Shown: positions 14,621 through 43,478, numbered from the stretch's first letter. The stretch: 45,303 bases of DNA from a virus (IMGVR_UViG_3300044713_000071:1-45303), one strand, 5' to 3'. A program made the numbers and translations. Notes: generated by a model from the letters alone, not told the origin.

Positions 14621-15256
14621 ATGAAATTCACCATTGGCGGCTTAATCTGTATCGCTCTCCTGCTTTTATTCTCAGGCATGACGGTTCGTGGAGACACATT
14701 CTATGAAATGAGCAATGAGCTTGTGCGAGCTGGATGGACGCCGGTTCTGTCATCGTCGAATACTGTTGCTGAATGGGACTTTGATAATACCCATCAGGCA
14801 ACAAACTTTTTAAATACCAATCTTTCCGACTCATATATTGCAGGCGATGAGCCGGAAAACGATTTCCTCGTTTATTCCACAAATACCTGCGTCATGGCCA
14901 GGAGCAATGTCGTGGCAATTGAGTGTGACGACCTAACCATCACGAATAGCGGCGAATTTTGGTATCACAATAAACAAATAGGCAGCATCGCTCCGGTCGG
15001 CCAGATATTCTCAATTTCGTCCGAACTCATGACGAATTGGGCGACTGTCTCCCACACCGAGCCGGTGCTTTCGGGGAAACAGCTAACGGATGCGGTCTAT
15101 TACTATGGCTTGTATCATCAGATCGGAACCATCCAAAGCAACGTGATTGCGGTCATTGACTGGAAAGGACAATCCAAAACAGTTGTCCTCGAAAGCACGA
15201 ATATTGGGACAATCGAGCGCGATATTTCCGATGCGCCAAACCTTATCGGACAATGA
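14621..15256 (+). CDS. Secreted hypothetical protein with Sec signal peptide
   Basis: A 211-residue protein from the ATG at 14621. Residues 1-24 (MKFTIGGLICIALLLLFSGMTVRG) form a standard signal peptide, with likely cleavage before DTFYEM. The mature part is Asn/Thr/Ser-rich and probably all-beta, with no recognised domain. A secreted product encoded between packaging genes is odd for a virion component; it may be a cell-envelope factor acting on the infected cell, such as superinfection exclusion. Its stop overlaps the next start (ATGA). Confidence 0.72.
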   Translation: MKFTIGGLICIALLLLFSGMTVRGDTFYEMSNELVRAGWTPVLSSSNTVAEWDFDNTHQATNFLNTNLSDSYIAGDEPENDFLVYSTNTCVMARSNVVAIECDDLTITNSGEFWYHNKQIGSIAPVGQIFSISSELMTNWATVSHTEPVLSGKQLTDAVYYYGLYHQIGTIQSNVIAVIDWKGQSKTVVLESTNIGTIERDISDAPNLIGQ

Positions 15257-25816: not shown

Positions 25817-26218
25817 ATGAAAATATTTCCAGTTTTCACAGCCCTATTCCTTTTGCTGCTCATTTCGGGCGCAAGGGCTGGTGAAATTAACTGGCCGACC
25901 GCGCAGAATACTGTTTTCACGAATAACATCGTTTCGACAAACATCACGGCGACCACAATTCAGACCAATTCATTTACTGGCGTCCGGTCAATTTATCATA
26001 CGTTCGAATTTGATTGGACCGGAACTGGAACCAATGCGGCCACGAATTATTTGGATTATAGCGTTTCTGGCATCAATTGGACGAACGCCTTCACCATAGG
26101 CGGAACGGCGAGTTATTCGGCGCAGGTTCAATTAACCGGAGTGTTTCCATATTTCCGCGAACGCAGCACCATGTATAGCACCAATGGTTCAATGAACACC
26201 TACTATGCAGGCCACTGA
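25817..26218 (+). CDS. Secreted Asn/Thr-rich protein with signal peptide
   Basis: A 133-residue protein, ATG at 25817 with an AAGGGGAAAC site. Residues 1-22 (MKIFPVFTALFLLLLISGARAG) are a Sec signal peptide with ARA before the cut. The mature part repeats Thr-Asn (TNNIVSTNITATTIQTNSFTG) and contains YLDYSVSGINWTNAF, probably a beta-sandwich. Similar composition to the fibre proteins at 33.6-41.4 kb. A signal peptide on a head-module gene is unexpected. Confidence 0.7.
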   Translation: MKIFPVFTALFLLLLISGARAGEINWPTAQNTVFTNNIVSTNITATTIQTNSFTGVRSIYHTFEFDWTGTGTNAATNYLDYSVSGINWTNAFTIGGTASYSAQVQLTGVFPYFRERSTMYSTNGSMNTYYAGH

Positions 26219-27140: not shown

Positions 27141-27571
27141 GCCAATACACGAGTCAAACTGACATCTTGGGCGAGATTCAGCTTGCCGACCTGATTTCAT
27201 TGACCGATGACGCTCCGTTTACGGGCAATGTTAATCAGACCATTTTAAATCAGGTGATTTCGAATGCCAGCGGTGAGATTGATTTCTATGTTGGAAGTCG
27301 TTATTCGGTTCCATTCAGTCCAACGCCGCCATCAGTGGAATCAATGGCCATAGTTCTGACCTGTTACCGGCTCTATCGTCGGCGTGAAGTTCCTGACGAA
27401 AAGAACAAATATACCGAGGATAGACAGGAAATTATCAAGTTCTTGCAAAAGGTTAAGGCTGGCGATGAGGCTCTTGATTTGAGTGTTTCTCAGGAATTTT
27501 CGCCGGTTCAATCCGTCCAGCGGGCGACTATTTATGGATGGGGTTCGTCCTTCGTTCCAAACTCAATGTAA
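27137..27571 (+). CDS. Head-tail adaptor (Mu gp36-like, DUF1320), TTG start
   Basis: A 144-residue protein starting with TTG at 27137 overlapping the upstream stop (TTGA), so it is made by re-initiation. TSQTDILGEIQLADLISLTDD, ASGEIDFYVGSRYSVPFSPTPPSVES and YRLYRRREVPDE match the DUF1320/gp36 head-completion family. Connects portal ring and tail. Confidence 0.84.
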   Translation: MSQYTSQTDILGEIQLADLISLTDDAPFTGNVNQTILNQVISNASGEIDFYVGSRYSVPFSPTPPSVESMAIVLTCYRLYRRREVPDEKNKYTEDRQEIIKFLQKVKAGDEALDLSVSQEFSPVQSVQRATIYGWGSSFVPNSM

Positions 27572-27577
27572 CGATGA

Positions 27578-28060
27578 ATGCAAGCCACAGCCGCAAATCA
27601 AATTATCCCCGCAATGGAGTTCATTGCGGAAACGCTCTTGACCTTGGTTCAAACGGTCAACGGCTCTTGCGTCATGGTTTCAAACATGCGGGAAATGTGG
27701 CAACTCGCCTCCGAAGATTCGCAGAAACCTTTGATTTATGTGTGCTACGGTGGCGAATCCGCTTGGAGCAGCAATGCCAACATATCCGCACTGACATATC
27801 GAGTGTCCCGAAATTGGATAATTGGAATCAAGCAGGGACGGGGATATACATCGGACAGGGGATACAGCCTGACCAATTTTCTACCATTTGTGGAACTCGT
27901 ACGCGACACGATTCGCACCATGATCGGCGTCAGTCAGGACAACGGAAACGATTTTGCTTCCATCGAACCTTGGTCCCTGGGAACGCAGATCATCGATGGG
28001 TATATTCTGCGATTCAGCACGAAAAACGATTTGCCTCAAATTTTAACGCAACCCGATTAA
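27578..28060 (+). CDS. Putative tail terminator/minor tail protein (Mu gp37-like position)
   Basis: A 160-residue protein. FIAETLLTLVQTVNGSCVMVSNMREMWQLASEDSQKPLIYVCYGGESAW, SALTYRVSRNWIIGIKQGRGY and LPFVELVRDTIRTMIG are compatible with a tail-completion/terminator fold; the position after gp36 also fits. No direct family match recognised. Confidence 0.6.
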   Translation: MQATAANQIIPAMEFIAETLLTLVQTVNGSCVMVSNMREMWQLASEDSQKPLIYVCYGGESAWSSNANISALTYRVSRNWIIGIKQGRGYTSDRGYSLTNFLPFVELVRDTIRTMIGVSQDNGNDFASIEPWSLGTQIIDGYILRFSTKNDLPQILTQPD

Positions 28061-28064
28061 GCCT

Positions 28065-28361
28065 ATGGCCGATTTAACACCAGAACAGCAGGCAGCCCAG
28101 CAAAAACTGGCTGAGGCCCGTGCCGCCCGAATCGCGGCCAAAGTCGCTTTAAAGGCCAAGCAAGATGCGCTTCGCGCCAATATCGGCAAGACCTTTTCGA
28201 ACGGCGAACAGGATGCCAAGGTTGTCAATTTCGAAGTCAATCACTATTCCGACGGGATATGGGGAGAATCATTCGTCATCGAATTAGATAATCCAAATCA
28301 TCACACATTCAGAAATTGTGAAATGTTCCTTGCGGAATTTCAATTGAAAGGAGCGCCGTAA
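28065..28361 (+). CDS. Hypothetical protein in tail module
   Basis: A 98-residue protein. Residues 4-40 are an Ala/Lys/Gln-rich amphipathic helix (TPEQQAAQQKLAEARAARIAAKVALK), then a beta-rich C-terminal half ending FRNCEMFLAEFQLKG. Possibly a tail or joining protein. Confidence 0.65.
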   Translation: MADLTPEQQAAQQKLAEARAARIAAKVALKAKQDALRANIGKTFSNGEQDAKVVNFEVNHYSDGIWGESFVIELDNPNHHTFRNCEMFLAEFQLKGAP

Positions 28362-28362
28362 A

Positions 28363-28806
28363 ATGTCATGGCCGCCAAGTTTCAGCCTCGCCTTTAAAGG
28401 CGCAGGTTCAACCACTATTAAGTGGGGCACTGATGGCATCATGCCGAACAGTTCGCCGAATGGTAATGGTTCCGGTGGCGTATTCGGTTCCTATACCGTC
28501 GAATCCATTCGCCCGAACGATGAGATTGAAAACATTTACATCGAAAATGGCACCGGCATCAAGTCCACGCGCATTCAATTGTGGCAGGGCCGCGTGGTTA
28601 CCTTCACCGTCGTTGACGACCTGAACATGATTCATCCGGCAATGGGAACACAGGTTTACATCATTGACCCGATGAGCGGAGATTTCCTGCTTTTCACTGT
28701 TACCAATAATGGCACAAACAACGCCCGTAAGGTTGAAGGCAAGCGTGATATTACCGCTGAATATCTGACCAACATTGAAGGTGGTGGCTCCGTGCCGCCC
28801 ATCTAA
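28363..28806 (+). CDS. Putative tail tube protein
   Basis: A 147-residue beta-rich protein directly before the tail chaperones, the usual slot of the tail tube gene. SFSLAFKGAGSTTIKWGTDGIMP, VFGSYTVESIRPNDEIENIYIENGTG, QGRVVTFTVVDDLN and DITAEYL suit the simple beta-barrel of tube proteins. Assignment rests mostly on position and size. Confidence 0.55.
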   Translation: MSWPPSFSLAFKGAGSTTIKWGTDGIMPNSSPNGNGSGGVFGSYTVESIRPNDEIENIYIENGTGIKSTRIQLWQGRVVTFTVVDDLNMIHPAMGTQVYIIDPMSGDFLLFTVTNNGTNNARKVEGKRDITAEYLTNIEGGGSVPPI

Positions 28807-29614: not shown

Positions 29615-31072
29615 ATGCCACGTTTAGCAGTCCAGTTTGAATTAGAAGTATCCAGCGCCCAAAAACAAGGGCAGCAGGCGGGTTCTCAATTTGCCACTGG
29701 ATTTGCGCAGGGCTTGTCGTCAAAAGGAAAGGCCGAAGCAGAGGCATTCATGCGCGGTTTGAGCGCAAGTGCCAAAGCGTCCGTCATGGCACAATTGGGA
29801 CTGTCATCAGGAAACGTTATCACGCCGCCAGGACTTGCGGTCTCGGCTTCTAAATTCCAGCAAATGCTGAATATGGGGCCGCTAAAGACTCCCATGCTCC
29901 CAACCGATTCAACGCAGGTCATGCGGCGAATCAATCAAATGGTTGGATTGAACAATATTCAGAATGTCGCCACTGGACAGGCTCGCACAATTTATACCGA
30001 TTTCTGGAAGCAAATAACGGCTGGAACAATCAAGGGCTTGCGAGATGTCACCGGCAAAGATTTGGCTAAAGTACAAGGATTGCCGGACATCGCATCCTAT
30101 GGTTCTGGACGAATGAAAAGTCTTTTGCTTGGTCTTGGTGCCGCTCCATTTTCTTCATGGATTGGCGCACGCTTGCTGTCGGATGCGGCCTTTGGTGGCA
30201 AAGGTGGCGGCGCCGGTGGTGGACATGGCGGCTTGCTTGGCGCTGGCGGCGCTGGCGGCTTCGCCGAATTCTTCATTGGCATTGAAGCTCTTAAAAAGGC
30301 ATTCGACTATGGCGCAGAGAAAATCAAACAGGTCATCGACAAAGGCTTTGACTTGTATGTGAATGCTTCACGCCTGCACACGACCGTTGGCCGATTCTTC
30401 TCAACAGAAGAAGCTGGCAAACAGGCCGGTCTTTCTGAATCGCAAATCGAGCAGTTCATGCTGCGTAACCAATGGGGACGTGCCCGCACTTCTTTGCAGA
30501 ATTTTGGCGTCATGTCGTCTCTGCGCGGCATGTCGAAAGATTTTCAGGATGCCTATCGCTGGGCGGCTCAAATTCAAGACCGGTGGGAATATACCAGCCG
30601 AACATCCTACGAGATTCACGTTAACATTCAACGCATGAAAGTTGATTGGTTGACCATGTGGAATGACAGCGGATTTTTAAAGGCATTGGATTCATTGACT
30701 GGATTGACTGACAAATTACTACATCTCATGGCATCCAACGGTAGTTCGATTCCGCGCACTCTTTTGGCCGGCCTGTTTCCGTCATTAAGCGGATTTATTT
30801 ATCAACTCGACCCGAATACCGGAAAAGGTCCAGCGTCAACCAACGCGCCTTTATTCAATCTTCCACGCGCGTTGCCTCAAATGAGCCAATTCGAGCGCAT
30901 GGGTTTTAATATCGGCGGTGTGAAAACCACGCAATCCCTGCTTGAAAAAGCCAATGGTTATTTGCAGGAGATTGCGCAAAACATTTCTAATGTCGTTAAG
31001 GGTGAAACCGGCGGTAGCAGTCACGGTCTCGGTTATCCAGGTTCATCCGGCGCGCTTCATAATATTCCATAA
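29615..31072 (+). CDS. Tape measure-like tail protein (short)
   Basis: A 485-residue protein after the chaperone fusion, the standard place of the tape measure. Features: helical Ala/Gln-rich N-terminal half (QKQGQQAGSQFATGFAQGLSSKGKAEAEAFMRGL), a Gly-rich stretch (about 195-215), a hydrophobic segment (FAEFFIGIEALKKAFDYG) and a Gly/Ser-rich C-terminus. At about 0.15 nm per residue it would specify a tail of roughly 70 nm, a short siphovirus tail. Confidence 0.72.
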   Translation: MPRLAVQFELEVSSAQKQGQQAGSQFATGFAQGLSSKGKAEAEAFMRGLSASAKASVMAQLGLSSGNVITPPGLAVSASKFQQMLNMGPLKTPMLPTDSTQVMRRINQMVGLNNIQNVATGQARTIYTDFWKQITAGTIKGLRDVTGKDLAKVQGLPDIASYGSGRMKSLLLGLGAAPFSSWIGARLLSDAAFGGKGGGAGGGHGGLLGAGGAGGFAEFFIGIEALKKAFDYGAEKIKQVIDKGFDLYVNASRLHTTVGRFFSTEEAGKQAGLSESQIEQFMLRNQWGRARTSLQNFGVMSSLRGMSKDFQDAYRWAAQIQDRWEYTSRTSYEIHVNIQRMKVDWLTMWNDSGFLKALDSLTGLTDKLLHLMASNGSSIPRTLLAGLFPSLSGFIYQLDPNTGKGPASTNAPLFNLPRALPQMSQFERMGFNIGGVKTTQSLLEKANGYLQEIAQNISNVVKGETGGSSHGLGYPGSSGALHNIP

Positions 31073-31073: not shown

Positions 31074-31394
31074 ATGCCAATCCCATCACGCAACATTCCA
31101 GTCGTCACAAAGTTGACTGCTGAGTTTACCGAACAATCATGGTATTTCGGACCAGCGCAACGAATCTCGGTGGCCGACCCAACAGTTCCATCCCATTTTC
31201 CGTGTCATATCACCGGCACTTCTGAGGGATTGCTTTGCGCTCATGGTTCCGAAATGGTTGGCATTCCGTGGAGCGTTTTGCGAGCAGTTTGGGAGTCCGC
31301 AAATCCGAAACTTACCGCACCGCCTGCGCCTAAGAATAGCGAAGTTGCTGCCGCAGTCAAAGCCGCTACCGCGGAGGCCGCAAAGCTTCCATGA
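31074..31394 (+). CDS. Small tail-module protein
   Basis: A 106-residue protein from the ATG at 31074 after the tape measure. TKLTAEFTEQSWYFGPAQRISVADPTVPSHFPCHITGTSEGLLC and an Ala/Lys-rich C-terminal helix. No family recognised. Overlaps the next start by ATGA. Confidence 0.65.
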   Translation: MPIPSRNIPVVTKLTAEFTEQSWYFGPAQRISVADPTVPSHFPCHITGTSEGLLCAHGSEMVGIPWSVLRAVWESANPKLTAPPAPKNSEVAAAVKAATAEAAKLP

Positions 31395-32446
31395 GTGTAC
31401 CTTCAACATTCGACAGGGCTGATGGTTCGCCCGCATCTGTAGCGGCATATGGATTCTATGGCGGCGTTCCCACGCCAGCGGGTGCGCGTGTCATTACACC
31501 ATCGCCAACTTTTTTCAATGAACTGCCAACATCTCCAGCAGTTGAATTATCCGAACAGGCGACAATCTCAAAGCGATTTGTTTGCGATTATCTGACCGGC
31601 CAACTTGTTTTAGCGGCGTCCCCTCGCGGAACAATATTGACCGATACAGCCAATAATGTAAGCCGCGTATTATCTACACGCCTTGATTATCTCAAGGGGG
31701 ATTATGCAATGGTCACGCAAACTGCTGAGGGAGTTTCATTCAGCGTTCCACCGGATGAGTTTGATATTGAAGTACTGGAATTCAATCCAGCCATTCAAAA
31801 GCATCCCCGTTATTGCGGTCTAAACAATGCGAATCCATCAGCGCCGGACGGCGGATATGCGGCATGGCAAATCTTTTCGTATATCCAGCAGGCGGTAAAC
31901 CAACAGCTTAACGGAGCATTCGCAACATATCTTTCTCAGGTGTTCGCGTGGCTTGGTGTCCCTCAAACCTCGTCATCGACTGTCACCTATCCAACATCCA
32001 CTTCGCCCATTCTGGCGCAGGCGGCTCTTGAACTTTACAATAAAATGCTCAAGGGCGAGGAAACCTTTTATCTGGCCGGTTTTCGCGTCCGGTTCTCGAC
32101 CTATAATTTCCTGCCGCAAAATGTTGACCCAGGTGGACGAATTGAAGACCCCGTTGCTAGCGGCAACTTGCCCTATTATTTTTGGAGCAACGATGGCAGC
32201 GGCAATCCGGGTTCAAACATCCTGACCGCTCTGGCGTCAACGATTTCGCCGCAATTTTACGCCAATGGCATATCATGGCTTCGTGAGGCTGACTCGCAGT
32301 CCTATCAGCGCACATGGTTCCGACGCACTCAAAGTTGGGTTGGCGGCCCTGCTGGTGGCCCATTCCCGAATGGTTACAGTTTCGTCGGTCACTGGGATAC
32401 CGACATTTATTCAAATACCTTTGACGGTTACAACCTGACTACATGA
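31391..32446 (+). CDS. Putative tail tip protein
   Basis: A 351-residue protein rich in aromatic and small residues, without a signal peptide: VAAYGFYGGVPTPAGARVITPSPTFF, DEFDIEVLEFNPAIQKHPRYCGL and FYLAGFRVRFSTYNFLP. Placed between tape measure and fibres, so probably part of the tip or baseplate. No recognised domain. Ends in an ATGA overlap. Confidence 0.58.
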   Translation: MSVPSTFDRADGSPASVAAYGFYGGVPTPAGARVITPSPTFFNELPTSPAVELSEQATISKRFVCDYLTGQLVLAASPRGTILTDTANNVSRVLSTRLDYLKGDYAMVTQTAEGVSFSVPPDEFDIEVLEFNPAIQKHPRYCGLNNANPSAPDGGYAAWQIFSYIQQAVNQQLNGAFATYLSQVFAWLGVPQTSSSTVTYPTSTSPILAQAALELYNKMLKGEETFYLAGFRVRFSTYNFLPQNVDPGGRIEDPVASGNLPYYFWSNDGSGNPGSNILTALASTISPQFYANGISWLREADSQSYQRTWFRRTQSWVGGPAGGPFPNGYSFVGHWDTDIYSNTFDGYNLTT

Positions 32447-33606
32447 GGCGTTCATTCCAAGTGATGATTCCGCGAAACGATTTGCCTCGTTTTCGTGAAA
32501 CATCTCCGCTTTCACCTGCGCGGGATTCCGGTTCAATGAGCCGGATGTATCTTGGCGTCACGCGAACGGCGGACAGGGCGATTGCGCTGGCCAATAAAGC
32601 CTCACAACTGTCAGCCATGTCTCAGGCTGGCGGCTTGCCTGGATTCTCCATTCAGACCGGCAATTTTTACCCGTTCAAGATTTACACGCCGACAAACCTT
32701 TCGTCGTTCCTGTTCTCGACTTCCGGCCAGACCGTTCCAATGGTGACAACGACTGGGGGTGCCCTTGTGCCATGTCAACTAATCAATGGCGCAACGAATT
32801 TGGCGGCCAATCCTCCGCAATTGAATATCGCAGAGACATGGCGCTTTTGGGCGGTTCGATGGGGATGGGTGGAGACACGGCCAATCTATTCGACAACCAA
32901 TCTTGCGGGGAATATGACATATTTGGTTGTGCCTCAATACGTTGATTTTTACGAGGCAAATGAACCCGCAAATAATCCAGTCACGCCTGATTCAAGCAAT
33001 ACAAACCCATCTGGCATTATCGCATTAGGCGTCAATCCAGAACCAACCTCTAATAGCGTTTCGGCGTCGCTTTGGATTCAAGTGATTCCCGATACAAGTT
33101 CGGCGGCGTTGCCAACCGCTCAGATTCAAGGAGTTTGCTATTATAGCAGTTCACCGCCGTATGACGTGACAATCCCCGCACCATTCAACCCAACGACCAA
33201 TAATCAGATTCCAATCGGTTATCTGTTTGGTAATGCGCCAGCCGTGCAGGCGTACAGCCTGATATTCGATCATGCTCGTAATCGGTTCCCGTGCGGCAAT
33301 GGTAATTTCGGCGGCAATGGCAATGGGACGGTGATGAACTTTCGCGGGACAATCTCGTACAATTCAACCGCGAACACGGCCGTCGTTTCTCCATCTGATT
33401 TGCTCAGCCAAGTGATGTACCCAGGGGACGTAATTTGGTTTTACAGCTATTTTACGTCAGGTTCAGGTGGCATCAATCATAACCGGCAATATTCATTTGT
33501 TGGCGCGACGCCAGCACAGTTCAATCAAAGTTTTGCCTATCCGAATCCCATCGGAGATGCCAATTGGACTTCGACAATTCCGGTTGATTTGGGGACAGCA
33601 GTATGA
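32443..33606 (+). CDS. Putative baseplate/tail tip protein, Asn/Thr-rich
   Basis: A 387-residue protein. The N-terminal 60 residues are basic and helical; the rest is beta-rich with many Thr/Asn/Ser/Pro: TGNFYPFKIYTPTNLSSFLFSTSGQ, ETWRFWAVRWGWVETRPIYST, VPQYVDFYEANEPAN. It may connect tip and fibres. No recognised domain and no signal peptide. Confidence 0.58.
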   Translation: MRRSFQVMIPRNDLPRFRETSPLSPARDSGSMSRMYLGVTRTADRAIALANKASQLSAMSQAGGLPGFSIQTGNFYPFKIYTPTNLSSFLFSTSGQTVPMVTTTGGALVPCQLINGATNLAANPPQLNIAETWRFWAVRWGWVETRPIYSTTNLAGNMTYLVVPQYVDFYEANEPANNPVTPDSSNTNPSGIIALGVNPEPTSNSVSASLWIQVIPDTSSAALPTAQIQGVCYYSSSPPYDVTIPAPFNPTTNNQIPIGYLFGNAPAVQAYSLIFDHARNRFPCGNGNFGGNGNGTVMNFRGTISYNSTANTAVVSPSDLLSQVMYPGDVIWFYSYFTSGSGGINHNRQYSFVGATPAQFNQSFAYPNPIGDANWTSTIPVDLGTAV

Positions 33607-36600
33607 TACTTAAAGGGCAGTTGCAGGCAAAACGACTCGGGGAGTGCAAAACGCTTCTCGCGTGCCTGTTGCTTTTCCTTTTCTGTTTTTCAATCGAAGC
33701 TCAGACGCCGCTCGTTTTGCAGGTCGATTTGACATATTTCGGTGCCAATCCCGCAACCAATCGACAGGTTCAATGGCAACAAGTTTCACCATTTCAAGGG
33801 AATTTCAATTATGCCGAATCTGACCCAGTCAATGGGCAAATCTTTATCACGAACCCACCCGCTGGCCCAAGTATGGCCGTCTTGTTTCCGCTCAATTTCG
33901 TGATTCAATCGCCACCCGGTCAGCGCATCCAGTTTCAAGTGACAATGCTACCAGGAGACGCCGGAACGATTGATGCGTCCAATCGGTTGACATCGCCGTC
34001 TCCAACATTTCCGGCTGGTCTCGTTTCATGGGCAGTGGCTACGAGCGAAACACGCTATGCCTTGAGCACTAATCAAGCGGGCGCTTATGGCACGCTCGCG
34101 CAGATAACCAATATTGCCGTCGCCACCGCCAATCTCGTTGGTCAAAATGGGACGAACAACCTCAATTCCACAAATGCGCTTTATCAGCTTGTCTTTAATG
34201 CCTTGGGAACATTGGCGACTAATTTGGCAAATGCAAGGCAAGCTGGTTCTTTCACACTCACAAATCTAGCGATTACCGGGGCTTTCACAAATGTCCTTTC
34301 CGCTGGTCAGAATACCACCCTTTCAACAAATGCTGGCGTCGTGAGCGTCAATGCCACCAACCAAACGTTCCTGACCAACACCATGACCGGCATCGTGTTT
34401 CAGTCTCCGAACGCTTACCAGCCAGCGACGGCTGCATTGACGAATCTGAGCGGCACCGGCGCATTCACCAACGGCTTTGGCGCTGGCTTAAATGTCACCG
34501 TGACGACAAATGCCGGTCAGGTTCTCGTGAATGCAAATAGCCAAACGAACGGTTTTACCAGCATCGTTTCATCGAATCCGGCTGCGTATTATCAAAATAG
34601 CAATCCGTCAAATTTCATTCAATCGACTGCTGTTCCGGCGACATTGACGAATGGCTTTTATCCGCTTTCAAACCCGTCGAACTTTATCCAATCGGCCAAT
34701 GTGCCAGCATCGCTGACAAATCAATTTTATCCGTCGTCAAACCCGCAGGGATTCATTCCCTCCGTGAATACCCCGTCATGGTTGACCAATGGGCTGTTGC
34801 CCGGCCAGAACATAAGTTTTATGACCAATGGGAACGTCCTGACGGTTTCGGCAACGAACCAAACCTTTTTGACGAATAACTGCGTCCAGAGCGGATTCAC
34901 GAATGCGTTGCTTTCTCAGGGACAGGCGACATTGCTCTACTACCCTACTTCCAACCCTTCTGGATTTATCTCCGGCGCGATAACGAACGCTTTCCTACCA
35001 ACCAATACCGCTGCTCTATTGTACTATCCAACATCGAATCCTTCTCAATTTATTACAGGTCTTTCGACAAACGGATTGGCATCGCTGGTTGTCGTCACTA
35101 ACCTAATAAATATCGCCGGATTCAATTCCACAAACAACGACACCTATAATTTTCTTGTCCTGTCGAATGTGACCTATGGGATTGGACTGGCGAACAGTAA
35201 TAATGAAATACGCCTTTATGGTGTTGCGACGAACTATGCGAACACAAATGCAGCCGCGCAAATTGCAGCAATCCCAGTGCGCACGAATTATATCGCGTCG
35301 ACAAATGGAATCGCCTATGGCGCTCTGATAATCGCAAATGCTCTCGTGCTGAACAGCAAGACTAATTTCCTTGGTTCAACAAACGTTATCGGGGTCGTCG
35401 GCAATTTCGGTGGAACATATGAGCGTGCGCCGTATGGAACTATATTCACCAATTTCTCGAACAGCGCATACACCATTATTTATTCGCTAGGAAATTTTTA
35501 CCTGCAATCGAACACCGTCACCATGTATAGTTGGGGTCCACCACTCGGCTTAGGGACAATCGTTCTAGGCCCTTCGCCAGCCCCCTATGCCTCTTTTGGG
35601 GGATATCGTGGCGAGGATGGCATTGTCATTCACGGCATAATTGATTCAACCAACTTGCTTTATCTCCTGCAACAAGCGGTTGGCGTGCCGGTTGTCGCAG
35701 GAATTGGGCTGACGAATTCAGTTGCCTCGGGAACGAACACCGTATCGTTGAACACTAATTTTGTCGTTCAATTAATCATCGCCAATTCAGTTGGACCGAC
35801 AAACGGAGTGGGGACAAATTTCGTGGAGAGTTATGTCTCTCAGTTCAATCTCACAAATCAGTTCTTTGCTGCACCGGCGATCACCAACGTTCTATATACG
35901 AACGTCACTTCTCTTGAACCGGTCATCTCCGGCAATACGGTGTTCATCGAAACCAACTCAGGTGGGGGCGGAACGACGGCTAATGCGTATTTGACGAACG
36001 GAGTAAATGCCGATGCCTTTCCAAGTCTCACCAACGTGACGACTACAATTTCGATTAGCAACGTCACAGCCTCAACAATCGTCAACTCCCCAAATTTCGG
36101 AGTTGGCGGCACGCCGTATCTTAACTTCTCCGGCCAGCATTATGTTTTGGATTCGCCGGGGAGCGTATTGACGACATTTGGCGGTGATACCGGAACTGGC
36201 ATAATCGGCGGGACGAGCAATCAGATTGCTACCGTAATCGGCCAGTTCTACGGAGGATTCATCTTTGGAGGTTTCAGCAATGCTTTGCAAAATGGAAGCG
36301 GCGGTGCATGGGTCAATTCAGGAATTGAAAACAGTTTCCTATCGCATATTTATTCATTTAGCGGAGCGGTGACCAATCTGGAAATCATCAACTCCTACTA
36401 CAGTGGAATTTCGAATCAGCCAGGCGGCACGTTATTCAACGATGGGATTATCAATGGCGTCTATTCGTACATCGGTCAGAACTCGTCATCCGGTTCAGGC
36501 GTCTATTCAAATGACTTCGCCTTAGGGCCGGATGTTGGAATCACCAACAGCGATGTTATCGCTATTAACGCCAGTCCTTCAACTCCGATTACCTCAACGA

Positions 36601-38174
36601 CGAATGATGAGATTCTTCTTTCAGCGGCAAATGGGGTTTTCATCAATGGCTCGCTTATTACGCCTGGAATTCCGTATTTGAACGGTTCAGGAACGAACAC
36701 GACATTGAATTCAGCGGTGTCTGTCGTTGTGACAAATCTTGGAGTGCTCGGAACGTCGTACCTTGATGCGTCGAACTTGACGGCCGTTTGGACTGCTCCA
36801 CCGTCTCAGCAGACCGGCACATATCCTCAGGGACTTGTCCCGATAATGACTTGGAGCAATCTGCCATCCGGTCTTGCATGGGCGTCTGGCAATTTCCTTG
36901 GAACATCGCAAGCCAATAGTGTTTCGAACGCATGGGGCTTTTTCACGACCAATAGCGTGACGGTGACGACATGGGGCACTCCCGGCATGAGCAACACGGT
37001 TACCTATACCTTTCCGTCTAATGTCACTGTTTCCGGGGATGGAATTTCCTTTGGCGATGCCGACCAGGGATTTGCGCAGGCATTGTTTCAGGTTTCATAT
37101 GATGACGTGAACTGGACCACGTTGGGACAGACTCAATTGCAATGCAGCCTCAGCGGAAATGCGATGACGAATTTCTTTGCTCCGGTGGTATCCAGATATT
37201 TCAGATGGTCGTTTACGAATCAGCTCGGAACGTTTCAGGTATTTGGCGCTGGCAACAGCGCACTTGACCCGCCAGCTCAGATTTACGGTCCGCCATATGT
37301 TCCACCGACCGCCAACAACGGCATGAATGTCGTTTCATCGCCCGGACCGTCCATCTACTACAACGCTCCGAACGGTATCGGTTTCGGAATGACCAATGTT
37401 TATCCATATCAGCTTTCCATTAATGGAGGCGTATTCGCTGGTTCAGTTGCCGCTCCGAACGCCAGCCTTGGTGCGCTGGACGTGTCATCGTTGACGTTGA
37501 ACGGCAATCCCGTCTCGCTCTCAATCAGTTCATTGATATCCGTCTATGCAACCAATTTCTTCGATGCTCGGCAGGACGGGATTTACACAGGCAATGGCGT
37601 GCCAGGATTCCTGACAAATTCGGTTGGCGCCGTCTTTGTGAATATGACGAACTTCCCGTCCGGTCAGGCATATAATGGCGTGTACTCATCGGGTCCGACG
37701 TGGCTGGCAACAACGAACTGGAATACGTTCATTGCGGGGTCTTTCTATTCCACGAACTATCCACCGTCATATTATGTGGCTGGTTCATCTCCTTTGGGAA
37801 AATGGGTGCCAACGACACACATATCCGGTATATCCGGTGCTTCTCCATCCTTTTTCTTTGCCACATCGCCGCTACTCAATGGGACGCCGCCGATTACGAC
37901 GGCTTACGTCGTAACGAGTGTGGTCAATCCGTTGACAACCGTGTCATCGGTTAATTCCTCAATAACCGTCGTTCCGAGCACCAATAACGGGGTTGTGAAT
38001 TACGACCTCTCAGTGGGAGCAGGACAGAGCGTTTATTTCATCGTCAATCAAAGTGCGACTCTGCCAATCGCCACGCGTCCGGCCATCTGCTACGACACTC
38101 TTGGCGGGGAATTTTTCAAGACAAACTCAACGACCGACAACTCTGGCTGGTTGCAAATAATCTCAGACCAATGA
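33603..38174 (+). CDS. Giant tail fibre/adhesin-like protein with signal peptide
   Basis: A 1523-residue protein, by far the largest gene. The N-terminus MILKGQLQAKRLGECK is followed by a hydrophobic core TLLACLLLFLFCFSIEAQ, a Sec-type signal with Gln after the cut. The body is Asn/Thr/Gly-rich and beta. Residues about 330-490 contain five or so Y-P-x-SNPSxFI repeats, a motif seen in tail fibres. Around residues 1110-1220 a discoidin-like segment appears (SFGDADQGFAQALFQVSYDDVNWTTLGQ ... RYFRWSFTNQLGTFQVFG). The C-terminus ends YDTLGGEFFKTNSTTDNSGWLQIISDQ. Host binding is likely; the signal peptide is unusual for a fibre. Confidence 0.75.
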   Translation: MILKGQLQAKRLGECKTLLACLLLFLFCFSIEAQTPLVLQVDLTYFGANPATNRQVQWQQVSPFQGNFNYAESDPVNGQIFITNPPAGPSMAVLFPLNFVIQSPPGQRIQFQVTMLPGDAGTIDASNRLTSPSPTFPAGLVSWAVATSETRYALSTNQAGAYGTLAQITNIAVATANLVGQNGTNNLNSTNALYQLVFNALGTLATNLANARQAGSFTLTNLAITGAFTNVLSAGQNTTLSTNAGVVSVNATNQTFLTNTMTGIVFQSPNAYQPATAALTNLSGTGAFTNGFGAGLNVTVTTNAGQVLVNANSQTNGFTSIVSSNPAAYYQNSNPSNFIQSTAVPATLTNGFYPLSNPSNFIQSANVPASLTNQFYPSSNPQGFIPSVNTPSWLTNGLLPGQNISFMTNGNVLTVSATNQTFLTNNCVQSGFTNALLSQGQATLLYYPTSNPSGFISGAITNAFLPTNTAALLYYPTSNPSQFITGLSTNGLASLVVVTNLINIAGFNSTNNDTYNFLVLSNVTYGIGLANSNNEIRLYGVATNYANTNAAAQIAAIPVRTNYIASTNGIAYGALIIANALVLNSKTNFLGSTNVIGVVGNFGGTYERAPYGTIFTNFSNSAYTIIYSLGNFYLQSNTVTMYSWGPPLGLGTIVLGPSPAPYASFGGYRGEDGIVIHGIIDSTNLLYLLQQAVGVPVVAGIGLTNSVASGTNTVSLNTNFVVQLIIANSVGPTNGVGTNFVESYVSQFNLTNQFFAAPAITNVLYTNVTSLEPVISGNTVFIETNSGGGGTTANAYLTNGVNADAFPSLTNVTTTISISNVTASTIVNSPNFGVGGTPYLNFSGQHYVLDSPGSVLTTFGGDTGTGIIGGTSNQIATVIGQFYGGFIFGGFSNALQNGSGGAWVNSGIENSFLSHIYSFSGAVTNLEIINSYYSGISNQPGGTLFNDGIINGVYSYIGQNSSSGSGVYSNDFALGPDVGITNSDVIAINASPSTPITSTTNDEILLSAANGVFINGSLITPGIPYLNGSGTNTTLNSAVSVVVTNLGVLGTSYLDASNLTAVWTAPPSQQTGTYPQGLVPIMTWSNLPSGLAWASGNFLGTSQANSVSNAWGFFTTNSVTVTTWGTPGMSNTVTYTFPSNVTVSGDGISFGDADQGFAQALFQVSYDDVNWTTLGQTQLQCSLSGNAMTNFFAPVVSRYFRWSFTNQLGTFQVFGAGNSALDPPAQIYGPPYVPPTANNGMNVVSSPGPSIYYNAPNGIGFGMTNVYPYQLSINGGVFAGSVAAPNASLGALDVSSLTLNGNPVSLSISSLISVYATNFFDARQDGIYTGNGVPGFLTNSVGAVFVNMTNFPSGQAYNGVYSSGPTWLATTNWNTFIAGSFYSTNYPPSYYVAGSSPLGKWVPTTHISGISGASPSFFFATSPLLNGTPPITTAYVVTSVVNPLTTVSSVNSSITVVPSTNNGVVNYDLSVGAGQSVYFIVNQSATLPIATRPAICYDTLGGEFFKTNSTTDNSGWLQIISDQ
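34594..35060. repeat. Y-P-x-S-N-P-S-x-F-I coding repeats in giant fibre
   Basis: Diverged repeats of roughly 20-50 residues, each holding a YP/YY-x-SNPSxFI core (SNPSNFIQS, LSNPSNFIQS, SSNPQGFIPS, TSNPSGFISG, TSNPSQFITG). DNA copies are diverged, so this is an old duplication rather than recent slippage. Confidence 0.85.
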
Positions 38175-40870
38175 AACTTCGATTTTTCATCTTGTTAATG
38201 CTGCTTTCGATTTCTGCTTTCGGGCAGACTCAGCAATGGAATCGATTTGTCACTACGCCGGATGGACAGCCAGTTAACGGTAATACGGTAACGAATCTTC
38301 AAGGCTCAAACGTCGTCGGCACAATTAAGCTAACGAGCGCCAGCATCACGGCAATCACGAACAACAACATCACCATACTGGGAGCATTGACAGATAATAC
38401 AGGCAATGCTGGCGGCTTCGGCCAGATTCTTACTTCTTCTCCTGGGGCTGGTGGCGTTGTTTGGGAAAATCCGTCTCTCGCGTTCCCTCTTCCCGGCAAT
38501 GTCATAACGAACTTCGATCAACACAATTGGACGAATCAAAGCGCAGGCGGAATCTTTGCAAACGTCGTGACGGCTAGCACGTTCTACGGAACATTTGACG
38601 GAACTTTTAATCCCATCGGCCAGACATTTCTTTTTACAGGCAGCACGAACAGCTATTTGGAGAGCGAAATCCAAAACACGAGCAACGGTACAAATGCGAG
38701 CGGTGATTTTGTGGTGACGGCTGGCAATGGAAATGAGTCTCAAGGCTACGTGGATATGGGAATCAACTCCATGAACTTCCTCGGATACATCGGCAGTTCA
38801 AATGATGCGTATTTGTACGCTCAAGGCATTCCGACGAATACATACGGTGGCAACCTGTGGATTGGTGCGGCAACGACAAATACGGTGACGACAATCTTCG
38901 GATCATCGGCGCAACCTGCCAGTTCAGGCGGTCAAGGTTATGGATTCACAAACGAAGTGATTTATACCCCATCTAACGCTAATTTCAACGTGGCGATAAA
39001 GGCGAATGCGGGGGTTATTGGCAACGCATCCACAGCCACATCGGCGACTAATTTTAATAATGTTTCCTATATCTATCCCACGAACGTTTTTGCGAATGGA
39101 GTTGGGGACGATACGCTTGCGGTTTCAAACACGATAGTCTTGGCAAATACGGGAAACGGTTTAACCGTTATTGATTTGCTTGGGAAGTCCTACGGTATTT
39201 ATGCGTCATTGCCTGCGATAGATTCGATGCACGCTCAATTGCAAAACGGTGAAATTGATTACTATTCGACAAACGGAGCCTGCCTGACATTCCCGAACAC
39301 AAACGGTGTGAGTTATTTGACAGGACGAGACCAATATGAAGCGGCTCACTTAAGGATTTTCCAGAAAGCAGGTATTCCAAACACAAACTCCATTGGGATT
39401 CTTTTAGGCGATTCGAGCGGCCAATACGGAGTTGACGCGCAAGTTGCTTTTTGTTCAATCACAAACTTTTGGCGCGGGATTGAAGTCGCCTCAATGGCGC
39501 AGGTCAATATTCAGAACAACAATATTTTAAACAATTGGTCGAATGATGTTTATATTGCCAATAGCGGCCCTGACCCTGATATGATACGCATTTTTCAGAA
39601 TGACATGAATCATGCAGAGGTTGGGGGCGGCTCAACCATCACGAATCAGGCTTTCAATAACATTAATATACAGTGCGATATTGGATGTAAAGACGTGGAC
39701 ATTGAACAAAATAACGTTGGAGGAACTAAGGCTTTCCTGCTCGCGTTTCCTCACAACAGCGATGTGATAAGCGTGAATTATGCCTACAACGAACTTGAAC
39801 TTGTTCAGAACGACAACGTGCACACAAACTATTGTCCGGTTACAGTATGGGACGGTGATTTGACCTATATCAATGGGCAGAATGGAAACGGTTCCGGCGT
39901 GGCTTCAAGCAATTTTACGGCCAATGTTGGTATTTATGCGACAAACGGGTTCGGGCTTAATTTGCAGGACGATTTTATATACCAAGCGCAACCCGGCTTC
40001 AAGGTCGATGTGTGGTGCGCATCGTGGCTCAATAGCGTTTATTTTGTCAATACACCATGTCCATTGACGGAAAGGATTCACAACACATGGCAGGACGTAG
40101 GCACTCCGTATACCTTTAATTCTGGACAGGGGTCGCTTCCAATCTACTGGTCGAACACCAATACTGTGATGATTACTACTACGCCATACGGGCCAAACAA
40201 CAATAATGTAATAGATATTTTTGGGGGAGGCAGCGGCGGTATTCAGGTATTCAATAACGGGAATGCTGTTAGTTTTAACACAGCGGGAAGCGTTTCGTTT
40301 ATCAATTTCAATACGGAAGCAATCTACGACCAAGGCGCGGATTCATCTCTTTTAATCGCTGCTCAATATTCCCATGTTTGGCAATTAGATTCCCTGACTA
40401 CATCCACAACAGATTTGGAAGGTTCGAACAATTTTCTTTATGCGTTCGCCCCCTTTACTGGAAATATTGTAGTCACAAATGGCTCATTCGTTGGCAACGG
40501 TTCCGGCCTGACAAACATGGCGACGACATTCTTTACGAACGCGCCTGTTCTCGGCGGAATTTATACAAACAACTCCGGTAAGGTTCAGGAGTTCACAGTC
40601 CCAGTAGTTGTCACTCAGCCGGCGGCAACCTTAGGCTCATCGGAAATAGATGCTCAAATCCATGCGCCAGGGGGAGCTTTCTTTACTGTAAGCGACTTGG
40701 ATGTTGCTGGCGGGATTACATCGGTACTGTTTACGAACAGAGATACTTTCGTAATCAACATCCCTCAAGGATTCGGTTATTGCATTACCAGCACTGTCAG
40801 CGGGACGGGGTATACGGCTGGCATCGATAACTCGGGAGTTCGGACAAATACGCTTACGCTCTACCCATGA
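38171..40870 (+). CDS. Tailspike-like beta-helix protein with signal peptide
   Basis: An 899-residue protein. MKLRFFILLMLLSISAFGQTQ is a signal peptide with Gln after the cut. Mid-region VSNTIVLANTGNGLTVIDLLGKSYGIYASLPAIDSMHAQLQNGEIDYYSTNG and the later SIGILLGDSS, FWRGIEVASMAQVNIQNNNILNNWSNDVYI look like a right-handed beta-helix (pectin-lyase-like), as in tailspikes. A GNGSGLTN-type segment near residue 780 also occurs in fibres. Probably binds or cleaves surface polysaccharide. Overlaps both neighbours by ATGA. Confidence 0.7.
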   Translation: MKLRFFILLMLLSISAFGQTQQWNRFVTTPDGQPVNGNTVTNLQGSNVVGTIKLTSASITAITNNNITILGALTDNTGNAGGFGQILTSSPGAGGVVWENPSLAFPLPGNVITNFDQHNWTNQSAGGIFANVVTASTFYGTFDGTFNPIGQTFLFTGSTNSYLESEIQNTSNGTNASGDFVVTAGNGNESQGYVDMGINSMNFLGYIGSSNDAYLYAQGIPTNTYGGNLWIGAATTNTVTTIFGSSAQPASSGGQGYGFTNEVIYTPSNANFNVAIKANAGVIGNASTATSATNFNNVSYIYPTNVFANGVGDDTLAVSNTIVLANTGNGLTVIDLLGKSYGIYASLPAIDSMHAQLQNGEIDYYSTNGACLTFPNTNGVSYLTGRDQYEAAHLRIFQKAGIPNTNSIGILLGDSSGQYGVDAQVAFCSITNFWRGIEVASMAQVNIQNNNILNNWSNDVYIANSGPDPDMIRIFQNDMNHAEVGGGSTITNQAFNNINIQCDIGCKDVDIEQNNVGGTKAFLLAFPHNSDVISVNYAYNELELVQNDNVHTNYCPVTVWDGDLTYINGQNGNGSGVASSNFTANVGIYATNGFGLNLQDDFIYQAQPGFKVDVWCASWLNSVYFVNTPCPLTERIHNTWQDVGTPYTFNSGQGSLPIYWSNTNTVMITTTPYGPNNNNVIDIFGGGSGGIQVFNNGNAVSFNTAGSVSFINFNTEAIYDQGADSSLLIAAQYSHVWQLDSLTTSTTDLEGSNNFLYAFAPFTGNIVVTNGSFVGNGSGLTNMATTFFTNAPVLGGIYTNNSGKVQEFTVPVVVTQPAATLGSSEIDAQIHAPGGAFFTVSDLDVAGGITSVLFTNRDTFVINIPQGFGYCITSTVSGTGYTAGIDNSGVRTNTLTLYP

Positions 40871-41445
40871 AGCTCGCCCTTTCAATTCTGCTATTTGCTC
40901 TATGCGCCTCGGCCCAGTTAATCCCGCCGATGGTTCAATCGTCGGTTGTGGTTCAGCATAAAGTTCCGACGCCGAAAACATTCCCTCTCTCCTGGTATCA
41001 ACCGCCGTCACCGCTCGTAGCGTCCTGTACGATCACTGAGCAAACAAATGGCATTGCCTTCGCATCGACGAACACGACGGGTACAAACGTTCTCGCTCAG
41101 AAATGGCCAGGGACAAATGATTATTCATTTGTGACGATTGGAACGAACGGCATTAAATCGGCTCAATCGGTTTTCACTCTCAGCGGATGGTATCACGGCA
41201 ACACGCTCAATCTTTCGGTCGTCTCAAACGGTAGCACATGGACGAATATTGTATGCGCTGACGAATCCACATTGACCGCTCCAGCGTTTTTCAGGGTGGC
41301 CATAGGCGATACGGTTGTCATGCAAGAATCTCCATCACTGGCGTTTAGTTCAACTCTTATACTGTTTGCCGGAGACATTGACAACTTTCCAAGCATAGCG
41401 GCATACAAACCACTTTGGATTCCATATACGAGAAATATTCCATGA
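40867..41445 (+). CDS. Secreted Asn/Thr-rich protein
   Basis: A 192-residue protein. MKLALSILLFALCASAQL is a signal peptide with Gln after Ala-Ser-Ala. The mature part TFPLSWYQPPSPLVASCTITEQTNGIAFASTNTTGTN is beta-rich, Cys-poor, and similar in style to the fibre genes. Might be a fibre-associated or host-surface protein. Confidence 0.68.
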   Translation: MKLALSILLFALCASAQLIPPMVQSSVVVQHKVPTPKTFPLSWYQPPSPLVASCTITEQTNGIAFASTNTTGTNVLAQKWPGTNDYSFVTIGTNGIKSAQSVFTLSGWYHGNTLNLSVVSNGSTWTNIVCADESTLTAPAFFRVAIGDTVVMQESPSLAFSSTLILFAGDIDNFPSIAAYKPLWIPYTRNIP

Positions 41446-41852
41446 ACGAAGATACGCTCATCTGGTTATTCGCAATATTGGGCGGATGGAATCTCATCCT
41501 GACTGGTCACAGTTCTTACCTCATGTGGCAGATGAAAAAGCTCGTGCTTGCGGTTGACCTGTTCCTATCTGAGAATGGTAAAGGAGCGGCCATGATTCTG
41601 CATTCGCCAGACGACCATTTGGGAATTGATGAGCTTCTCGAACGGTACATTGCCAATCACCATGACCTTTCATATCAGGACTGGCTCGCGCTCAAGGTCG
41701 TCTGCGAGTGTATCCGCAATGGAACTATGCCGGATGGGCGCAAACTTTCAACGGATGAACAATTGGCCGCCAATTCACTGATGGCTTCGTTTCTCGCGCA
41801 ACTGGCCATGCACAAAACGAGTTGGGTTGAACCCATAAAGAAAGCCGGATAA
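41442..41852 (+). CDS. Membrane-anchored protein, holin-region
   Basis: A 136-residue protein from the ATG at 41442 (ATGA overlap). One N-terminal transmembrane helix, MNEDTLIWLFAILGGWNLILTG, then a cytoplasmic or periplasmic domain with DLFLSENGKGAAMILHSPDDHLGIDELLERYIANHHDLSYQDWLALKVVCECIRNGT. Similar position to small accessory membrane proteins around lysis genes. Function unknown. Confidence 0.68.
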   Translation: MNEDTLIWLFAILGGWNLILTGHSSYLMWQMKKLVLAVDLFLSENGKGAAMILHSPDDHLGIDELLERYIANHHDLSYQDWLALKVVCECIRNGTMPDGRKLSTDEQLAANSLMASFLAQLAMHKTSWVEPIKKAG

Positions 41853-41859
41853 TGACCCC

Positions 41860-42051
41860 ATGAATGAGAAGCTTAAAAAGTCACTGTTTGGGGGAAGCAG
41901 TCTCGGACTTTCGGCTGTCGCGGTCATTTGGATTTACCACAATTTTGTGACTAGACAGGAATACGATAAGGATTACAGTATTCAGCAGGCACAGAATACC
42001 GAACTTTGGCACGCAATACATCAGCAACAAAATACCAGTAAACCACAATGA
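41860..42051 (+). CDS. Small single-pass membrane protein
   Basis: A 63-residue protein: Lys-rich N-terminus, one helix (GSSLGLSAVAVIWIYHNFV), then a Gln/Asn-rich helical tail (QQAQNTELWHAIHQQQN). The size and topology would suit an i-spanin-like or holin-related protein, but neither is proven. Confidence 0.62.
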   Translation: MNEKLKKSLFGGSSLGLSAVAVIWIYHNFVTRQEYDKDYSIQQAQNTELWHAIHQQQNTSKPQ

Positions 42052-42482
42052 AAATACTCGTCCTCATCGCATTGCTCGCCTGCCTGTCCTTCAAATCGCA
42101 GGCGGCTCCAACATTGATTGCCGTAACCAATTATTTTTTACCATATCAGGAAGCGACAAATGCCATACCAACTAACCTACCTTATTCCACGTCCGCTGAC
42201 ATTGCGAAAGTCCTTTCTGATTTCGGCATCCACGTCTCGCTTGCGAGCGTCGGCATGTTCTTAGCCGTTGGCATTCCGCTTGTGAATGCTCTCGCGCGGT
42301 ATGCCCGCAAAGCCATCCCTGATAATGCGCAGGTCAATTCGCTTGGTCTGGCGCTCGCCCATGTGGCGGGTGAAGTGAATCCATCGATTGCCAAGCTTGC
42401 GGCAGAGGCGGCAAGTCCATCTGCGCAGATAGCGATTCCTGCCACACAGGCTATATTACCGCCAGCACCGCCAAAGGTATGA
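42048..42482 (+). CDS. Putative holin-like or exported membrane protein
   Basis: A 144-residue protein. MKILVLIALLACLSFKSQA is a signal-like segment; a second hydrophobic helix VSLASVGMFLAVGIPLVNALARYARK follows near residues 62-87, and the C-terminal third is Ala/Pro-rich. Two hydrophobic segments and a position in the lysis region allow a holin role, but the composition is also that of a small exported protein. Confidence 0.6.
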   Translation: MKILVLIALLACLSFKSQAAPTLIAVTNYFLPYQEATNAIPTNLPYSTSADIAKVLSDFGIHVSLASVGMFLAVGIPLVNALARYARKAIPDNAQVNSLGLALAHVAGEVNPSIAKLAAEAASPSAQIAIPATQAILPPAPPKV

Positions 42483-42619
42483 ATATCCTCAGCGATACCA
42501 TTTGTCTTGTTTGTGGTATTTGGCTTGGTATTTGGCTTGGCGCTTTGGTTATCCGAAAAGACCAAAAGGCCGAACCCATCGAACCCGAAAAGCTGATGGA
42601 AGGAATCGGAGACCCGTAA
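42479..42619 (+). CDS. 46-residue membrane peptide with GIWLG repeat
   Basis: MNILSDTICLVCGIWLGIWLGALVIRK then a charged tail. One helix with a duplicated GIWL motif, coded by a direct repeat, and a Cys-Leu-Val-Cys pair. Start overlaps the upstream stop (ATGA). A pore-forming or lysis-associated peptide is possible. Confidence 0.6.
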   Translation: MNILSDTICLVCGIWLGIWLGALVIRKDQKAEPIEPEKLMEGIGDP

Positions 42620-42659
42620 ACATAAAACAAAATCAATAAAATGAATAAAAGGAATACAC

Positions 42660-43478
42660 ATGAAATTAATTGAGTTCCCTGAGCAAACTGTCGTTATCGC
42701 CAAAGACCAACCGCAATATCTACCAATGCCGGCGCATGTGACGCACGATGATATGGGACGCATAATTTGTTGCTGGAAACTGAATTGGCGAGAGCGGCTA
42801 CGATTGCTCTTGACTGGCACACTATGGCACCACATTTGCACTTTCGGCAAATCTGTCCAACCTCAATTGCTGGATGTCAAATCACCATTCGTGGCCGCGA
42901 CAAAGGTTTTAATAGGCTCGTTGCTCATTTTGGTATCAATGTCCGCGAGGGCTCAAACGTCCACCAATTCCACCAGCCCACTACAGGACATTATCAACCT
43001 TGCCGCCGACATAGGTAATGGTCCTTGGGGCGTTTACAGCGGCTATGGTCATAGCATCTCAGGACCAGGCGCAAGTCTCGTATTCGCCGGTGTGACCTAT
43101 GACCTCGTAACCAATGCGAGCGACGCCGGCTTTGGCTCTGGCGCAATCGTCGGCTACGACGACACGTTCAGCCAGCACGCGCATCAAATCAACTCCGTTA
43201 ACGGCGGCTGGCAAGTCAGCTGGACCGGCAAACCGCTGGAATTCATCGGCTCAACCATACTGACGAATATCACAGCGACAGTGATGGCTTATCAGGTCAT
43301 CGCCACGCCGGAAAAGGGCAATGCGGTCGGTGCAATCACCGGAACCTCTGTTTCGTTCGACATTGGCGAATGGAGCGGCTTTCACTTAAAGGCTCTTGGT
43401 ATGTATGAGAGCCGAAATGGCACAGCGTTTGACGGCAACTGGCTTTGCGGTGGTTTGGCCATTGCACATAAGTTCTAA
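42660..43478 (+). CDS. Fusion of phage EFPEQ-domain protein with secreted outer-membrane-like domain
   Basis: A 272-residue protein with two parts. Residues 1-75, EFPEQTVVIAKDQPQYLPMPAHV ... CCWKLNWRERLRLLLTGTLWHHICTFG ... QPQLLDVKSPF, match a common small phage cytoplasmic protein that usually stands alone. Directly after comes a signal-peptide-like segment (residues 78-99, VAATKVLIGSLLILVSMSARAQ) and a beta-rich 170-residue domain ending in Phe (AIAHKF), as outer-membrane proteins do. An in-frame GTG at 42891 would start exactly at this signal segment, so two products are possible. Confidence 0.68.
   Translation: MKLIEFPEQTVVIAKDQPQYLPMPAHVTHDDMGRIICCWKLNWRERLRLLLTGTLWHHICTFGKSVQPQLLDVKSPFVAATKVLIGSLLILVSMSARAQTSTNSTSPLQDIINLAADIGNGPWGVYSGYGHSISGPGASLVFAGVTYDLVTNASDAGFGSGAIVGYDDTFSQHAHQINSVNGGWQVSWTGKPLEFIGSTILTNITATVMAYQVIATPEKGNAVGAITGTSVSFDIGEWSGFHLKALGMYESRNGTAFDGNWLCGGLAIAHKF

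What the first reader, a model, noticed from the sequence alone, without database searches (positions are those of the whole stretch)
33603..43478. Series of signal-peptide-bearing, Asn/Thr-rich proteins in the fibre module
Proteins at 33603, 38171, 40867, 42048 and the second half of 42660 each carry a Sec-type signal segment, as do outliers at 14621 and 25817. Virion fibres normally assemble in the cytoplasm and have none. Four of the seven have Gln right after the cut (IEA/Q, AFG/Q, ASA/Q, ARA/Q), a feature described for Bacteroidota signal peptidase I substrates. Either this phage group exports its adhesins before virion attachment, or these are envelope proteins made for the infected cell, or the fibres keep a hydrophobic N-terminal anchor to the tail. 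Any of these would be new biology.
Basis: partly seen in the sequence, partly recalled or inferred. Interest (0 to 1): 0.78.

Follow-up and report, generated by a model that had tools for sequence, protein, structure and literature searches.

The report
Phage fibres carrying bacterial export signals
The fibre-like proteins of this uncultured tailed phage, and of nine distant relatives, begin with the signal that sends proteins out through the bacterial membrane; cultured marine phages have the same arrangement on proteins recorded as parts of the virus particle, so these phages may build their fibres outside the compartment where the rest of the particle is made.

Summary
Four fibre/lysis-module proteins (33603, 38171, 40867, 42048), plus 25817, start with good Sec/signal-peptidase-I segments; 14621 is plausible; 42660's segment is internal and undecided. 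Random stretches of fibre body never score as high (0/20,000). Ten divergent phages of the group all have a 1,069-2,083 aa protein at the fibre position with a signal peptide. In eight of them only the signal peptide and the following ~125 residues are homologous, while the bodies are unrelated, which is typical fibre architecture. Gln follows the cut in 14 of 35 cases (3.6% expected). Decisive outside evidence: Cellulophaga phages phi10:1 and phi19:1 carry such peptides on four consecutive fibre genes, all recorded in GenBank as virion proteins from MS/MS. One shares 650 residues (49%) with phi4:1 gp052, also an MS/MS virion protein, which has no signal peptide. I conclude that these are exported adhesins, probably virion fibres that dock after export. 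That they only coat the envelope and co-purify with virions is the main rival. Cleavage, virion presence in this group, and the host are untested. Part prior art: P. gingivalis phages encode Q-rule exported proteins of unknown function.

The parts
33603..33701 (+). Signal peptide of fibre 1 (33 aa, MILKGQLQAKRLGECKTLLACLLLFLFCFSIEA/QTP)
   Evidence: Score 3.52; own-N-terminus shuffles 21/5000; orthologues in G001, G008-G012 and G018 also carry one
33702..34070 (+). Conserved first domain of mature fibre 1, the only part shared between phages; weak model of a transthyretin-like beta-sandwich
   Evidence: blastp homology of SP plus ~125 aa in eight phages, E 1e-7 to 1e-44; alignments A6-A8; AF2 pLDDT ~70-80 over most of residues 1-90, Foldseek best E 1.3e-3
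33603..38174 (+). Fibre 1, 1523 aa, Asn/Thr/Ser/Gly-rich; start codon overlaps the stop of 32443 (ATGA)
   Evidence: phrog_17517 'tail protein' at aa 1076-1200, E 8.6e-5
38171..38224 (+). Signal peptide of fibre 2 (18 aa, ...SISAFG/QTQ)
   Evidence: Score 3.70; shuffles 0/5000
38171..40870 (+). Fibre 2, 899 aa; its middle reads like a beta-helix tailspike/lyase (inspection only); start overlaps the stop of 33603 (ATGA)
   Evidence: no PHROG, Pfam or phage tblastn match; AF2 model unusable, pLDDT 33.5
40867..41445 (+). 192 aa exported protein (signal peptide 40867-40914, ASA/QLI); start overlaps the stop of 38171
   Evidence: Score 3.24; shuffles 68/5000; G008 has an SP protein and G010 a lipoprotein between fibre and lysis genes
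42048..42482 (+). 144 aa protein with signal peptide (42048-42104, SQA/APT) and a second membrane segment; lysis/membrane cassette
   Evidence: Score 3.50; G010 31897 shares the VNPSIAKL region and also has an N-terminal hydrophobic segment
42660..43478 (+). ORF joining a cytoplasmic-type phage domain (aa 1-76) to an internal signal segment (42891-42953, ARA/QTS) and a part ending in ...LAIAHKF, like an outer-membrane barrel; start site undecided
25817..26218 (+). 133 aa exported protein directly after the decoration-like gene 25309; signal peptide MKIFPVFTALFLLLLISGARA/G
   Evidence: Score 3.81; homologues G001 3372, G013 13549 and G004 17156 all start with signal-peptide-like segments
14621..15256 (+). 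211 aa protein upstream of terminase with signal-peptide-like start (VRG/DTF); internal start of ORF 14579
   Evidence: Score 3.26; no homologue found in the group
31391..33606 (+). Two tail-tip-region proteins (351 and 387 aa) without signal peptide; homologues or same-position genes mark the position of fibre 1 in the relatives
   Evidence: no SP

Best explanation
The fibre proteins of this phage group are Sec substrates. They are made late, translationally coupled to the tail genes, exported across the inner membrane, and cut by the host signal peptidase I; where the new end is Gln it could be capped as pyroglutamate. The conserved first domain of the mature protein then docks the fibre onto the tail tip from outside the cytoplasm, most likely when holin and lysin bring the cytoplasm and its particles together with the periplasm/outer membrane. 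Shown here: the signal peptides, their conservation on homologous fibres, the conserved-N-domain/variable-body architecture, and the fact that signal-peptide fibres of cultured phages are recorded as virion proteins. Inferred: cleavage, the place and time of docking, and virion presence in this particular group.
For: (a) Ten of ten phages with a fibre region have a signal-peptide protein of 1,069-2,083 aa there. (b) In eight the homology covers the SP and first ~125 mature residues only, with unrelated bodies, as in virion fibres with an anchor domain. (c) Most sites keep an AxA-like pattern although the peptides differ (ADA/T, SQA/A, VFA/T, VGA/Q, AFA/E, VFS/A, ATA/Q), and Gln at +1 is 14/35 against 3.6% background, P 6e-12. 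(d) phi10:1 gp091-094 and phi19:1 gp101-104 have signal peptides and carry the GenBank note 'structural protein, experimental MS/MS proteomics'; related modules occur in Pachyviridae and Duneviridae. (e) The same 650-residue body is MS/MS-recorded in phi4:1 gp052 without a signal peptide, so the body is a virion fibre and the signal peptide a swapped front end. (f) In control phages only 3 of ~105 ORFs of 300 aa or more score, two of them one TerL artefact and one an OmpA.
Against: No particle of this group exists. The MS/MS evidence is a GenBank note; the source paper is not held and exported proteins can co-purify with membrane vesicles. A 1.5-2 kaa protein would have to stay competent in the periplasm and meet the virion during lysis, for which I know no precedent in tailed phages. 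Some members also have ~1,000 aa signal-less proteins (G004 24312, G013 20786, G018 32958) or the 32443 family that could be the virion's receptor-binding part. My scorer is not a trained predictor.
Confidence: 0.5

Rival explanations
1. Exported but not virion parts: the phage coats or feeds the infected cell. The fibres are secreted adhesins or enzymes on the host surface or in the matrix (receptor masking, superinfection exclusion, freeing progeny from glycans, binding to surfaces), captured from host exported proteins, and they co-purify with virions.
For: Other exported proteins sit in the same module: barrel-like proteins ending in F, lipoproteins, SP proteins next to the capsid genes. 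PHROGs files the phi10:1 fibre as moron/'pectate lyase'. Some signal-less large tail proteins could be the real receptor-binding proteins. Lambda Lom is a known exported protein coded among tail genes (PMC12309495).
Against: Conserved first domain with unrelated bodies is fibre architecture. Four consecutive SP genes are noted as MS/MS virion proteins in each of two phages. The same body is a virion protein in phi4:1 without any signal peptide. Starts overlap stops of the tail genes.
Confidence: 0.32
2. Uncut hydrophobic N-terminus: the segment is not exported but stays in the cytoplasm and plugs the fibre into the tail or membrane.
For: Charged start plus hydrophobic stretch alone would also fit an anchor; 33603 and G008 have longish n-regions.
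Against: Conserved small residues at -1/-3 and Gln at +1; Sec would act on such a segment in any case; the same fibre body works without it in phi4:1.
Confidence: 0.1
3. Chance hydrophobic N-termini or wrong start codons.
For: One artefact score in the window (22564), a few in relatives and controls; 42660 and 14621 depend on internal starts.
Against: 0/20,000 random stretches; 10/10 phages; four or five consecutive genes in each of five cultured phages.
Confidence: 0.03

Closest known systems
Cellulophaga baltica phages phi10:1 and phi19:1 (Assiduviridae), phi19:3 and phi46:3 (Pachyviridae), and Cellulophaga phage Ingeline_1 (Duneviridae): fibre modules
   Same: Four or five consecutive fibre-module genes with Sec signal peptides, often with Gln at +1; pectate-lyase-type bodies; in phi10:1 and phi19:1 recorded as MS/MS structural proteins
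   Different: No detectable sequence similarity to the window's proteins; cultured Flavobacteriia hosts; signal peptides not remarked on in the records or in papers I could search
Q-rule exported proteins of Porphyromonas gingivalis phages ('Nixviridae', PMC10367356)
   Same: Phage genes with signal peptides exposing Gln
   Different: Five genes of unknown function; not reported as fibres or virion parts
Lambda Lom and similar exported morons
   Same: Phage-coded Sec-exported protein among tail genes
   Different: Small outer-membrane barrel, not a fibre; resembles at most the C-terminal part of 42660
Filamentous phage coat proteins (Inoviridae pIII, pVIII)
   Same: Virion proteins with cleaved signal peptides (own knowledge)
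   Different: Extruded ssDNA virions; the window has terminase, portal, head protein and head-tail adaptor of a tailed phage

Membership tests
Sec / signal peptidase I substrates | Positive n-region, hydrophobic h-region, small residues at -3/-1 | tested here: met
   (home-made scorer)
Sec / signal peptidase I substrates | Cleavage in vivo | not testable with these tools
   needs N-terminal proteomics
Bacteroidetes Q-rule substrates | Gln at +1 in most substrates (average ~71% in Bacteroidetes, most other tested phyla below 20%; PMC5837995) | tested here: inconclusive
   14/35 = 40% in the group: far above background, below the Bacteroidetes average; Verrucomicrobia are not mentioned in that paper
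Tailed-phage tail fibre | Gene position after tail-tip genes in the late operon | tested here: met
Tailed-phage tail fibre | Conserved N-terminal domain, variable body | tested here: met
Tailed-phage tail fibre | Present in the virion | not testable with these tools
   Only for the analogous Cellulophaga proteins, through GenBank notes
Tailed-phage tail fibre | Made and assembled in the cytoplasm, no export signal (usual rule) | tested here: not met
   signal peptides in 10/10 phages
Lom-type outer-membrane moron | Signal peptide plus small beta-barrel ending in an aromatic residue | tested here: inconclusive
   Only the C-terminal part of 42660 and G008 28535, G009 33858, G010 32841 end in ...F; no fold confirmed

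The most novel reading that the evidence does not exclude
Several unrelated families of tailed phages finish their virions outside the cytoplasm: the fibres are sent through Sec, trimmed (and possibly pyroglutamate-capped) in the periplasm, and fitted to otherwise complete particles during lysis, the signal peptide being a swappable front end on ordinary fibre bodies.
Probability: 0.4. Interest if true: 0.9.

Novelty: new variant of a known kind. Interest (0 to 1): 0.76.

Why it matters
Tailed-phage assembly is taught as wholly cytoplasmic until lysis. If fibres are exported first, infected cells would display or store the phage's adhesins before lysis (receptor masking, superinfection immunity, neighbour binding), receptor specificity could be set at lysis, and annotation that treats signal-peptide proteins as morons would be missing the receptor-binding proteins of whole phage groups. 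It is directly testable in cultured Cellulophaga phages already shown to have such genes, with a natural control: phi4:1 carries the same fibre body without the signal peptide.

Tried and rejected
Direct relatives of the fibres by single-protein scans of IMG/VR and tblastn of the phage collection: none. Relatives came only through head-protein and terminase alignments. Host by prophage search in GTDB contigs with terminase and head-protein alignments: nothing. Shine-Dalgarno use is barely above shuffles, as in both Bacteroidota and Akkermansia phages, so it does not decide the host. The idea that the exported capsid-side proteins (25817 family and others) are paralogues of the signal-less decoration protein 25309 was not supported by profile comparison. 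AF2 of the 899 aa protein was unusable. AF2 of the fibre N-domain gave only weak transthyretin-like matches. The apparent signal peptide of 22564 was rejected: nearly all its homologues lack it and its h-region is glycine-rich and starts after a 20-residue n-region. Literature searches on signal peptides of tailed-phage fibres found nothing to the point.

Full report
What is in the window. The window is a 45.3 kb IMG/VR virus record of a tailed phage: terminase 16064-17611, portal 19076-20545, major head protein 23702-24658 and head-tail adaptor 27137-27571 are recognised by PHROGs. The tail-tip region (31391, 32443) is followed by the flagged module. Starts of 33603, 38171 and 40867 overlap the preceding stop codon (ATGA), so they are coupled to the tail genes. 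Pfam and PHROGs see almost nothing in the module, apart from a weak 'tail protein' match in 33603.

Conservation. Head-protein and terminase alignments brought in relatives. Nine long contigs were read in addition to the window. All ten phages have a 1,069-2,083 aa protein at the same place with a signal peptide. For eight (window, G001, G008-G012, G018) blastp homology covers the signal peptide region and the first ~125 mature residues only; bodies are unrelated. G004 and G013 agree by position only, and G011 and G012 are close relatives. Several phages have a second or third signal-peptide fibre in tandem: G008 23322 (BNR repeats), G009 30846, G018 43978 and 46167. Over 35 signal peptides of the group the residue after the predicted cut is Gln in 14, against 3.6% background (P 6e-12). 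Since the peptides themselves have diverged, keeping hydrophobicity, small residues at -1 and -3, and Gln at +1 argues for use by Sec and signal peptidase I rather than for a mere anchor.

Other exported proteins. A 25817 family (G001 3372, G013 13549, G004 17156) follows the decoration-like gene. Families at G013 15002/G002 1816 and G009 18308/G010 14723 lie beside tail-tube or head genes. Lipoproteins and small proteins ending in aromatic Phe lie in the lysis region. A paralogy of the exported capsid-side proteins with the decoration protein was tested and not supported.

Decisive outside evidence. Among cultured phages, phi10:1 of Cellulophaga baltica has five consecutive fibre-module genes with signal peptides (SLSA/QTTD, LSFG/QNIR, GVSA/QTVI, GLNA/QTVE, NCFS/QGKI). 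The first four are annotated 'structural protein ... experimental MS/MS proteomics analysis'. phi19:1 gp101-104 are the same case. phi19:3, phi46:3 and Ingeline_1, of two other families, share the arrangement. phi4:1 gp052, also recorded from MS/MS, has the same 650-residue body (49-50% identity) on a signal-less N-terminus. So one fibre body is used with and without a signal peptide, and both forms are recorded in virions. Among control phages (Akkermansia-type G006, G007 and Chantilly, G014, a groundwater myophage, FCL-2, parts of phi14:2 and phi4:1) only three of about 105 large ORFs score, one of them an OmpA and two the same terminase artefact.

Mechanism. The best reading is export, cleavage and later docking on the virion through the conserved first domain. 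Export is likely. Virion attachment in this group is an inference from architecture and from the Cellulophaga records. The place and time of docking are not shown by anything here. The strongest rival is that the proteins act on the envelope of the infected cell and co-purify with virions; the paper I take to be the source of the proteomics is not held, so purity could not be judged.

Host. Unresolved. The head protein is 26-28% identical to that of Akkermansia phage Chantilly over its length, which with the Asn/Thr-rich composition suggests Verrucomicrobiota. The Q-rule (PMC5837995) and the 42660 N-domain (Croceibacter and Elizabethkingia phages) point to Bacteroidota. No prophage was found in GTDB contigs.

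Known and new. Phage genes obeying the Q-rule were noted in P. gingivalis phages without assigned function (PMC10367356). Exported morons such as Lom are known. I found no description of signal peptides on tailed-phage fibres; only open-licence papers could be searched.

Noticed in passing
window 10038-10766 (- strand): ORF made almost wholly of Ala-Met/Ala-Leu dipeptides (MALAMAMALAM...), a long low-complexity tandem repeat in the early region.
   Followed up: no
window 26205-27140: Gene conserved in many relatives between head and adaptor genes (phrog_1574; 40-64% identity) that reads like a glycosyltransferase; in G001, G008 and G011 it is fused to a ~210 aa N-terminal extension.
   Followed up: partly
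G008 28041-28538, homologues in G011, G012, G018: Phage lipoprotein with a tyrosine-phosphatase-type motif (HCWHGEDRTG; HCARGKNRSG in G012) in the lysis region.
   Followed up: no
window 42660-43478; G008 28535, G009 33858, G010 32841: Small exported proteins of the lysis region ending in ...F like outer-membrane barrels, not detectably related to each other.
   Followed up: partly
G013 15002-15379 and G002 1816-2190: Signal-peptide protein family (47% identical) beside the tail-tube gene, absent from the window.
   Followed up: partly
G004 24312, G013 20786, G018 32958: ~1,000-1,200 aa signal-less proteins sharing a C-terminal half, just upstream of the signal-peptide fibre; candidate alternative receptor-binding proteins.
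   Followed up: partly
G013 29927-30685: Protein that reads like a papain-like cysteine protease (QGQIGSCTANA motif) at the end of the fibre/lysis module.
   Followed up: no
window 24668-25291 (- strand) and relatives in G001, G008, G018: Minus-strand ORF right after the head-protein gene with homologues elsewhere in the relatives (two copies in G001), possibly a homing-endonuclease-type insertion.
   Followed up: no
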